Shown here piece after piece: positions 1 through 8,719 of a DNA stretch of 52,416 nt. The DNA comes from Bacteroidota bacterium. Lineage in GTDB: Bacteria; Bacteroidota; Bacteroidia; Chitinophagales; Chitinophagaceae. Where the stretch lies: contig JAKQEA010000101.1 in assembly GCA_029558715.1 (NCBI GenBank), positions 1-52,416 on the forward strand, given 5' to 3'. The translations under genes and the position numbers were made by a program. Numbering within the stretch: position 1 is the stretch's first letter; each line of letters opens with the position of its first letter. Below the pieces are notes generated by a model. The model saw only the letters and a program-made list of their open reading frames with translations, was not told where the DNA came from and did no database searches.

Positions 1-757
1 TGTTAAAGAGCTAAGCTACACGATAATTTGAAAGCAAATCACAACTCAGCCGTTGTTCGTAACTCCTGCTCCTTGTTGTTAAAGAGCTAAGCTACACGAT
101 AATTTGAAAGCAAATCACAACTGCATTTCCAGGGTATCCAATACATCGTTTGTTGTTAAAGAGCTAAGCTACACGATAATTTGAAAGCAAATCACAACAT
201 AGCATGCTGTACTCTTTCCCTTTCCTTGGTTGTTAAAGAGCTAAGCTACACGATAATTTGAAAGCAAATCACAACATAAGTGACAGTGGTAATGAGCATG
301 ATTACGTTGTTAAAGAGCTAAGCTACACGATAATTTGAAAGCAAATCACAACTATGAGGAAATTGTTTTTCTCAATACTTTTGTTGTTAAAGAGCTAAGC
401 TACACGATAATTTGAAAGCAAATCACAACCTTCGCCTGGAAACAGATATAAAAAATTCTGTTGTTAAAGAGCTAAGCTACACGATAATTTGAAAGCAAAT
501 CACAACATACGGGCTTTCGTAATAGTTGGCAACGGGGTTGTTAAAGAGCTAAGCTACACGATAATTTGAAAGCAAATCACAACATCTGACAGCAGCGCAG
601 CAAAGAGATGTAGGTTGTTAAAGAGCTAAGCTACACGATAATTTGAAAGCAAATCACAACTCATACGAAATGCAGTTGCCTTCATAATCAGTTGTTAAAG
701 AGCTAAGCTACACGATAACCTGCCTGACGGCAGTCAGGTTTGAAAGCAAATCACAAC
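1..757. CRISPR. Type II-C-like CRISPR array, right-hand end (10 repeats, 9 spacers)
   Basis: Ten copies of a 47-nt repeat start at -1 (first two bases missing), 75, 152, 229, 306, 383, 460, 537, 614 and 691. The nine unique spacers are 29 nt (first) or 30 nt (the rest). Repeats 2-9 appear identical. The repeat begins GTTGTTAAAGAG and ends AAATCACAAC, so its ends form a GTTGT/ACAAC inverted repeat. Read on the minus strand it starts GTTGTGATTTGCTTTCAAAT, which I recall as typical of Bacteroides/Bacteroidota Cas9 (II-C) arrays. That suggests crRNA from the minus strand, but direction is not proven. The last repeat (691-757) is 67 nt long because of a 20-bp insertion. No cas gene or convincing tracrRNA is inside the window; they presumably lie left of base 1. 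Confidence 0.97.
719..738. repeat. 20-bp palindromic element interrupting the last CRISPR repeat
   Basis: Within repeat 10 the sequence CCTGCCTGACGGCAGTCAGG sits between repeat positions 28 and 29; the rest of the repeat is intact on both sides. It is an imperfect inverted repeat: 8-bp arms with one mismatch around ACGG. A near copy, with perfect 7-bp inner arms, lies at 2121-2140. Two copies at unrelated sites suggest a small dispersed palindromic family (REP/MITE-like) in this genome; that is inference from two copies. Confidence 0.85.
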
Positions 758-1914: not shown

Positions 1915-2120
1915 CCGAAGGTGGACTTTTATTTTAACAACTGGCTAATTAATTTGAAACAGCCCTCATAAATAAACAGGCCATCCGGATAATAAGAGCT
2001 ACCTTTCGCTCTTTGCAGACCCGCCTGTTGCAATTATTTCCCTGTAAAGTAGTGAGTATGAAATGAACTATAAAACTTTCAGGCTACCATATCAACCAGC
2101 TTTGAAAAATTTATGTGCAT

Positions 2121-2140
2121 CTGCCTGACGGCAGGCAGGT
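2121..2140. repeat. Second copy of the palindromic element found in the CRISPR array
   Basis: CTGCCTGACGGCAGGCAGGT has perfect 7-bp arms (CTGCCTG / CAGGCAG) around ACGG. It matches the insert at 719-738 in all but two or three positions. It lies between the divergently transcribed genes at 1914 and 2175, 35 nt upstream of the latter, where it could also form a hairpin in a leader transcript. Confidence 0.8.
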
Positions 2141-8080: not shown

Positions 8081-8719
8081 ATGAAAAGAAGTGTGATTGT
8101 CTTTTTATTCCTGCTTTTTTTATGTTTCTCTTGTAATGTAAAGAAGGAGAAATCTATTGACCAGGTAACACTGGCAGTTAATTTCCAACTGATCAATAAT
8201 GTGAAACCGCTGATTAAAAGCGGTGATATTATTTTCCGTAACGGAATCGATGAAGTAAGCCAGGCAGCCAGAAGGATGAACCGGAAAGACACTTCCTACT
8301 CCCATTGTGGTGTACTTTTCATAGAGAACGATAGTGTGGTCGTATACCATGCCCTGGGTGGCAGTTATAATCCCGGCCAAAAACTGCTGCGGGAACCAAT
8401 TGACAGCTTTTGCAATCCCAAAGACAATAATGCGTTCGGCATTTACCGTTATTCCCTTTCAGGCGATCAGCTTCATTTAATGCAGCAAACAGTACTCAAT
8501 TACTACAAACAAGGACTAAAATTTGATATGTACTTCAATTATTTCAGCGATGATAAAATGTATTGCTCTGAATTTGTTTTTAAATCCCTGAACAAGTCTT
8601 ATGGAGGGGCCTTATCCGGGTATATCAGGCTTGATACGATCCCATTTGGAGTTACCACAGACGATATTTTTCTGCACCCCCGGTGCAAAATGATAAAGAA
8701 GGAAAGTTTTAAACTTTGA
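8081..8719 (+). CDS. YiiX-like permuted papain-fold lipoprotein (NlpC/P60 clan)
   Basis: A 212-aa lipoprotein: signal MKRSVIVFLFLLFLCFSC with the lipid-anchored Cys at 18. The body has the features of the circularly permuted NlpC/P60 (YiiX/YebB) group: an early GDIIFRNG segment, SYSHCGVLF with the candidate catalytic His, and MYCSEFVF with the candidate Cys near the C-terminus. The open frame extends upstream to 7982 inside phoH, but the ATG at 8081 gives the signal peptide. Known members include amidases or peptidases of uncertain substrate. It may be expressed together with phoH, which ends 28 bp before. Confidence 0.85.
   Translation: MKRSVIVFLFLLFLCFSCNVKKEKSIDQVTLAVNFQLINNVKPLIKSGDIIFRNGIDEVSQAARRMNRKDTSYSHCGVLFIENDSVVVYHALGGSYNPGQKLLREPIDSFCNPKDNNAFGIYRYSLSGDQLHLMQQTVLNYYKQGLKFDMYFNYFSDDKMYCSEFVFKSLNKSYGGALSGYIRLDTIPFGVTTDDIFLHPRCKMIKKESFKL

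What the first reader, a model, noticed from the sequence alone, without database searches (positions are those of the whole stretch)
691..757. Palindromic element inserted in the terminal CRISPR repeat
Seen: repeat 10 is 67 nt instead of 47 because CCTGCCTGACGGCAGTCAGG lies between its positions 28 and 29; a near copy is at 2121-2140. Inference: a small dispersed palindrome, moved in trans by an unknown enzyme or spread by recombination, has entered a CRISPR repeat. It can change the repeat's ability to be copied at integration or to pair with tracrRNA. If this is the leader-proximal repeat, later spacer gain would copy the insert; since no other repeat has it, either this is the old (trailer) end or no spacer was added after the insertion.
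Basis: partly seen in the sequence, partly recalled or inferred. Interest (0 to 1): 0.72.

Follow-up and report, generated by a model that had tools for sequence, protein, structure and literature searches.

The report
Hairpin insert in last CRISPR repeat
A 20-base palindrome, one of a family scattered through this bacterium and its relatives, has slipped cleanly into the oldest, functionally spare repeat of a Cas9-type CRISPR array; the case helps show how such tiny repeats insert, but it probably does not change immunity.

Summary
The last repeat (691-757) carries exactly 20 extra bases (719-738); the other nine in view lack them. The insert belongs to a dispersed palindrome family, P: 14 places in this genome at two mismatches or fewer, and 25 of 42 genomes of the genus at one or fewer. 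Insertion is precise. Of 138 site entries, 14 (13 distinct) have an uninterrupted counterpart in the same stretch, always at net +20, none with 1-10 bases duplicated or lost. From repeat orientation, relatives' cas9-cas1-cas2-array loci and a tracrRNA-like gene, the array is type II-C and repeat 10 its leader-distal end, upstream of every spacer on the crRNA strand. No crRNA should contain P, and acquisition should not copy it. Interrupted trailer repeats recur: 7 of 19 arrays with a visible trailer end, none found in interior stretches (582 full-length repeats, 24 genomes). Only 2 of the 7 inserts are clear hairpins, and only this one is P. The enzyme is unknown. A dedicated RAYT (REP transposase) is not supported, though PF01797 misses some RAYT-like genes. 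P recurs in broken tRNA-Leu fragments beside small GIY-YIG nuclease genes: a lead, not proof.

The parts
1..690 (-). Type II-C CRISPR array: repeats 1-9 with 29-30 nt spacers; crRNA sense is the minus strand; the array runs off the contig start
   Evidence: Repeat and spacing table, exact repeat search, tracrRNA-like anti-repeat in a relative
661..690 (-). Leader-distal (oldest) spacer, followed on the crRNA strand by an intact repeat (614-660)
   Evidence: Sequence and orientation argument
691..757 (-). Terminal, leader-distal repeat, interrupted: repeat positions 1-28 and 29-47 (window strand) separated by 20 nt, no base lost or duplicated
719..738 (.). Inserted palindrome P, CCTGCCTGACGGCAGTCAGG
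   Evidence: identical 20-mer also in G020 (L079, L092) and G021 (L093)
2120..2139 (.). Second P copy in the window, 35 nt before the ATG of an unnamed 189-aa ORF (2175-2744)

Best explanation
P is a 20-nt, REP-like, non-autonomous palindrome spread through this Chitinophagales genus. It inserted as one exact unit, without target duplication or loss, into an AA^TTT site of the leader-distal repeat of a type II-C array. (Shown: dispersal, precision, flank preference. Shown by comparison with relatives: trailer position. Inferred: the insertion chemistry.) The most likely route is single-strand insertion in trans by a Y1/HUH-type (IS200/IS605-like) activity with no dedicated partner; I put that enzyme assignment at about 0.4. 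The insertion survived because this repeat is expendable. On the crRNA strand it lies upstream of all spacers, so it supplies no crRNA handle, and it is never the template for spacer acquisition. It splits the repeat between the tracrRNA-pairing part (crRNA-sense positions 1-19) and the part next to spacer 9. At most it could weaken repeat-encoded transcription of that oldest spacer.
For: Dispersal: 14 places in the own genome, 0 in the reversed control; 25 of 42 genus genomes at 1 mismatch or fewer, control 0 in all 42. Precision: 138 site entries (some places held twice) tested for an uninterrupted counterpart in the same stretch, allowing 10 bases lost to 10 duplicated; 14 entries (13 distinct sites) fit, all at offset 0; in 75 non-redundant sites direct repeats of 2 nt are not in excess (3 observed, 3.07 shuffled) and there are none of 5 nt or more. 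Flanks: outward base +1 is T 73, C 45, G 27, A 5 of 150, and +2 and +3 are T-rich; the CRISPR site AA^TTT fits. Trailer end: relative G018 has cas9-cas1-cas2-array with repeats in the window's orientation and a last repeat, far from cas2, with three substitutions; G048 and G052 have cas1 and cas2 beside arrays of the same relative orientation. [quoted passage not shown] Flavobacterium II-C repeats have GTTGT leader-distal and are transcribed toward the leader (PMC8092290, passages). crRNA strand: tracrRNA-like anti-repeat with a terminator-like end upstream of G018 cas9. Recurrence: 7 of 19 visible trailer ends hold an interrupted last or second-last repeat, and no interior interruption was seen in stretches holding 582 full-length repeats of 24 genomes.
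Against: No mobilising enzyme was identified. The own Y1 transposase (L015) is flanked by other palindromes. Of 30 PF01797 loci only L052 (a match below the cut-off, P 117 nt away) and L057 (P 1.3 kb away) contain P, and 9 of 25 P-bearing genomes have no PF01797 match; but PF01797 can miss RAYT-like genes (G048), so that absence is soft. GTAG follows P in only 4 of 150 flanks and CGTC in none. 124 of 138 site entries had no counterpart to test. A one-base identity across P is in excess and unexplained (23 against 10.6). Five of the seven trailer inserts do not fold better than shuffles, so recurrence concerns inserts in general, not palindromes. The rest of the array and the cas genes are missing from this bin, so polarity rests on relatives. 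The anti-repeat alignment scored no better than shuffled repeats; it is accepted for its position before cas9 and what follows it.
Confidence: 0.78

Rival explanations
1. P is moved by, or travels with, small GIY-YIG nucleases that sit at tRNA genes: the nuclease cuts a site and P marks the repaired or immune site.
For: P interrupts the D-loop of tRNA-Leu fragments in 11 named stretches (that is what the scan asked for), and a GIY-YIG relative lies within about 300 nt of P in 10 of the 11 (one of them, L179, a weak match). P number tracks the number of GIY-YIG matches after allowing for genome size (partial rank r 0.58, n 42; PF01797 0.38). L180, L182 and L184 each hold two P-bearing fragments about 300 nt apart.
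Against: Few P copies are known to have a GIY-YIG neighbour; 3 of the 30 GIY-YIG loci examined hold P (7 of the 30 are long, UvrC-like proteins, and the P-tRNA cases L121, L122, L140 and L158 are not among the 30). Other tRNA fragments beside GIY-YIG genes carry unrelated palindromes. G013, G039 and G056 have P but only long GIY-YIG proteins. The own genome's one small GIY-YIG lies by tRNA-Met with another palindrome. The correlation counts long GIY-YIG proteins too.
Confidence: 0.15
2. P is mobilised by a dedicated RAYT/TnpA-REP transposase, as in classical REP systems.
For: Small hairpin, no target duplication, many copies; 16 of 25 P-bearing genomes have a PF01797 match (one of them, G050, below the cut-off). 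Bacteroidetes-rich TnpA-REP subclasses with atypical palindromes are described (PMC6006769, passages). A RAYT-like gene that PF01797 finds only weakly (16.8 bits, cut-off 23) sits in the cas operon of G048, so more such genes may be hidden; I raised this rival from 0.20 to 0.25 for that reason.
Against: P does not flank the PF01797 genes seen; 9 P-bearing genomes lack PF01797 and 2 genomes, G048 among them, have PF01797 without P; GTAG in 4 of 150 flanks, CGTC in none.
Confidence: 0.25
3. The insert is an old local sequence change of the repeat that merely resembles the dispersed palindrome.
For: The trailer repeat decays in many of the arrays.
Against: Exact 20-nt identity with copies in G020 and G021, zero mismatches in both repeat halves, 14 places in the genome.
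Confidence: 0.03
4. The insert is selected: it insulates the array's far end, for instance as a hairpin that stops read-through or blocks recombination of the last repeat.
For: Inserts at trailer repeats recur, 7 of 19. P lies between the tracrRNA-pairing part and the spacer-proximal part of the repeat. P and the 86-nt insert of G048 fold better than shuffles (z -2.65 and -7.70).
Against: Inserts differ in length (20 to 86 nt) and five of seven do not fold better than shuffles; the whole 67-nt repeat folds no better than shuffles (z -1.06). 12 of 19 arrays do without. Relaxed constraint explains the pattern more simply.
Confidence: 0.12

Closest known systems
REP elements with RAYT / TnpA-REP (GTAG and CGTC super-families; PMC3733652 and PMC6006769, passages seen)
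   Same: Short dispersed palindromes, no target duplication, non-autonomous
   Different: P has no constant GTAG/CGTC tag, is 20 nt with almost no loop, and does not flank the PF01797 genes examined in the genus
CGTC REPs (PMC3733652, passages seen)
   Same: Orphan palindromes without a dedicated transposase
   Different: No CGTC tag next to P; other sequence
Rickettsial palindromic elements and mitochondrial double-hairpin elements (recalled; mitochondrial hairpin papers seen only as a listing)
   Same: Hairpin units entering structured or coding sequence
   Different: Longer, other lineages, no CRISPR link that I know of
Degenerate terminal repeats of CRISPR arrays (mentioned for II-C in PMC8092290, passages seen)
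   Same: The leader-distal repeat decays
   Different: Here decay is by clean insertion of a dispersed repeat, and inserts recur in 7 of 19 arrays

Membership tests
REP element (RAYT-linked) | Short palindrome, dispersed, multi-copy | tested here: met
   14 places in own genome, control 0; 25 of 42 genus genomes
REP element (RAYT-linked) | Constant unpaired GTAG or CGTC tag at one end | tested here: not met
   75 sites, 150 flanks: GTAG (last base of P plus TAG) in 4, CGTC next to P in 0
REP element (RAYT-linked) | Copies flank a Y1 transposase gene | tested here: not met
   30 PF01797 loci: P in 2, one 1.3 kb off, the other a match below cut-off; RAYT-like genes missed by PF01797 were not searched genus-wide
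MITE of a DDE transposon | Target-site duplication | tested here: not met
   No excess of 2-nt direct repeats, none of 5 nt or more, in 75 sites; filled/empty pairs only at offset 0. 3-nt repeats 3 against 0.74 shuffled, 1-nt identity 23 against 10.6
Type II-C CRISPR array | Regular repeats with 30-nt spacers and a repeat of II-C kind | tested here: met
   the 19-nt end TTTGAAAGCAAATCACAAC is shared with the cas9-cas1-cas2-linked array of G018
Type II-C CRISPR array | cas9, cas1, cas2 and tracrRNA at the locus | tested here: inconclusive
   No Cas9 in the bin (the model finds G018 Cas9); the repeat is not on another contig, so the rest of the locus seems missing from the assembly

The most novel reading that the evidence does not exclude
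P and the small GIY-YIG nucleases form an undescribed two-part mobile system of Bacteroidota. The nuclease opens structured target sites (tRNA loops, CRISPR repeats) and a 20-nt hairpin is placed there with single-base precision. Dead tRNA copies and trailer repeats are then its natural record of insertions.
Probability: 0.12. Interest if true: 0.85.

Novelty: new variant of a known kind. Interest (0 to 1): 0.5.

Why it matters
A CRISPR array holds many identical copies of the empty site beside the filled one, so it gives an internal control for how a minute palindrome inserts. Together with the tRNA-Leu cases it shows precise 20-nt insertion without target duplication, which narrows the possible chemistry. 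It also shows that leader-distal II-C repeats in this order often carry inserts, so tools that define array ends by intact repeats may miss the last repeat.

Tried and rejected
Hairpin-tip targeting: rejected; stems around the junction are no commoner than at random places (75 sites against 4059 background places). RAYT as dedicated enzyme: not supported, with the caveat. P in other II-C repeats: scan of genome contigs, none (pattern control). Anti-repeat by ungapped scan in G018: nothing; a 13-nt exact stretch came up by local alignment, score 26 against 26-33 for shuffled repeats, so the alignment alone proves nothing.

Papers: exact string CCTGCCTGCCGGCAGGCAGG, 0 papers; LPAGRQAG, 0. Broader searches showed listings only. 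Passages, not whole texts, were seen of PMC3733652, PMC12638026, PMC8092290, PMC6008519 and PMC6006769. The listings showed nothing that fits.

Limits of counts: the 75 and 138 sites come from fetched loci, not a random sample. The correlations use counts typed. Of the 29 genomes with a match, 22 hold arrays; the 7 with one match each were not counted (G280 looks like a two-repeat remnant). G018 and G048 were added from the genus searches, giving 24. Left out of the 19 with a visible end: G341 and G392 (runs of N there), G398, G284 and G052 (contig end). G313 was counted as visible and uninterrupted, though a lone repeat lies 1.1 kb on. G048 and G357 were called interrupted by reading the printed sequence, the other five by script. 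Long arrays were only partly held, so interior interruptions outside the held stretches would be missed; one interior repeat of G341 is broken by N.

Full report
What is there. The window is one whole contig of a 4.0 Mb, 235-contig genome. The window opens inside a CRISPR array with 47-nt repeats and 29-30 nt spacers. The tenth repeat, 691-757, is split by 20 bases at 719-738. Both halves match the consensus without a mismatch.

The inserted sequence is a dispersed family. Pattern CCTGCCTGNCGGCAGKCAGG with up to 2 mismatches gives 14 places in the own genome, and 25 of 42 genus genomes have it at up to 1 mismatch; the reversed pattern gives none. The window's exact 20-mer also occurs in G020 and G021, so it is a form shared between species and not a decayed private copy.

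How it inserts. For 138 P site entries in the fetched stretches I asked whether the two flanks, joined, occur elsewhere in the same stretch. Allowing between 10 bases lost and 10 duplicated, 14 entries matched (13 distinct sites, since L090 and L152 are the same place), all at exact +20 and none at any other offset. A search for exact +20 alone with other flank lengths adds more tRNA-Leu cases and weaker ones, L067 and L088. The sites include the CRISPR repeat, tRNA-Leu D-loop and T-loop sequence, and two non-tRNA sites (L083, L090). In L205 one tRNA-Leu fragment carries two P insertions, both exact against the intact tRNA-Leu nearby. Direct repeats of 2 nt at the flanks are not in excess; a one-base identity is (23 against 10.6 shuffled; C 10, G 9, A 3, T 1), which I cannot explain. 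Outward of P the first base is T 73, C 45, G 27, A 5 of 150, and the next two are T-rich. The CRISPR site AA^TTT fits.

Why this repeat. In the relative G018 the order is cas9, cas1, cas2, array, with repeats in the window's orientation and a last repeat, far from cas2, that has three substitutions. In G048 and G052, cas1 and cas2 (NCBIfam) lie beside arrays of the same relative orientation. Published II-C work in Bacteroidota puts acquisition next to cas2 (PMC6008519) and transcription from within the repeats toward the leader (PMC8092290); type II-C is singled out as unusual in this way in PMC12638026 (passages). A tracrRNA-like anti-repeat before G018 cas9 makes the window's minus strand the crRNA strand. 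So repeat 10 is the oldest repeat, every spacer in view is followed on the crRNA strand by a repeat without P, and P should enter no crRNA. The putative -33 TTG motif of PMC8092290 would be moved 20 nt away from spacer 9; that is an inference. All this rests on relatives, because this bin lacks the rest of the locus.

Recurrence. Among 396 genomes of the order, 29 contain the repeat end TTTGAAAGCAAATCACAAC, 22 of them in arrays. With G018 and G048 added, I examined 24 genomes (582 full-length repeats) and could see the trailer end in 19. Seven hold an interrupted last or second-last repeat: G000 (20 nt, P), G048 (86), G108 (53), G388 (30), G357 (53) and G249 (58; its next repeat outward is also split), which share one genus group and similar inserts, and G068 (57). 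No interior interruption was seen in the held stretches; odd spacings were a run of N, a one-base insertion, a degenerate repeat, an unsampled gap and a lone distant repeat. Only the P and G048 inserts fold better than shuffles (z -2.65 and -7.70); the other five do not (z -1.35 to 0.90). Relaxed constraint on the last repeat explains this; selection for the insert is not excluded.

The enzyme. PF01797 is in 18 of 42 genus genomes, but 9 of 25 P-bearing genomes lack it, 2 have it without P, and P does not flank the 30 loci examined beyond one sub-cut-off match. The own copy is flanked by other palindromes. One caution came late: an ORF between cas9 and cas1 of G048 matches the REP-associated tyrosine transposase model NF047646 (61.8 bits, cut-off 80) but PF01797 only at 16.8 bits, so PF01797 undercounts. 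P often breaks tRNA-Leu fragments beside small GIY-YIG genes, and intact tRNA-Leu copies nearby lack P. Other palindromes sit in fragments of tRNA-Met, -Asp, -Ala and -Pro beside such genes. That association is striking, but few P copies are known to lie near such genes. I therefore leave the enzyme open, with a Y1/HUH-like single-strand route as the leading guess.

Verdict. This is a real, clean insertion of a dispersed hairpin, at a repeat where it should do little. The precise filled/empty pairs, the recurrence of inserts at trailer repeats and the GIY-YIG/tRNA link are the parts that go beyond an ordinary case.

Noticed in passing
L121, L122/L177, L140/L183, L158/L187, L178-L182, L184-L186, L188, L197, L205: tRNA-Leu fragments interrupted by P; a small GIY-YIG gene lies near in most, and an intact tRNA-Leu copy without P in most. 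L180, L182 and L184 hold two P-bearing fragments each.
   Followed up: partly
L174, L193, L207 (tRNA-Met), L199 (tRNA-Asp), L196 (tRNA-Ala), L189 (tRNA-Pro), L194 (tRNA-Glu): Fragments of tRNA genes beside small GIY-YIG genes in which part of the tRNA is replaced or interrupted by GC-rich palindromes, such as TCCGCC..GGCGGA.
   Followed up: partly
L219 8141-8914 (G048): RAYT-like ORF (NF047646, below cut-off) between cas9 and cas1 of a II-C locus, with internal palindromic repeats including GTAGGGACAACGCATGCGTTGTCCCTAC, like the TnpA-REP subclass 2.4 that carries REPs inside its gene (PMC6006769 passages). Its repeats differ from the trailer insert of the same array.
   Followed up: partly
L252 (G249) and L233 (G357): Two successive trailer repeats interrupted at the same position by similar inserts of over 50 nt ending near a CTTCGCT-type motif; either two insertions or an interrupted repeat that was once copied.
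   Followed up: no
L015 (G000:C168): The only PF01797 match of the own genome, flanked by two other palindrome types, CCCTCGGCTAAAGCCGAGGG and CAGGCCTTCAGGCCTG.
   Followed up: no
L090 about 8420-8492, minus strand: Likely tracrRNA of the G018 II-C system, diverging from cas9, with a terminator-like end.
   Followed up: partly
75 P sites: Excess of an identical base on both sides of P (23 against 10.6 by shuffling; C 10, G 9, A 3, T 1); no explanation.
   Followed up: partly
L009 (G000:C36:11705) and L145 (G042:C15): P at matching places in what looks like the same region in two species.
   Followed up: no
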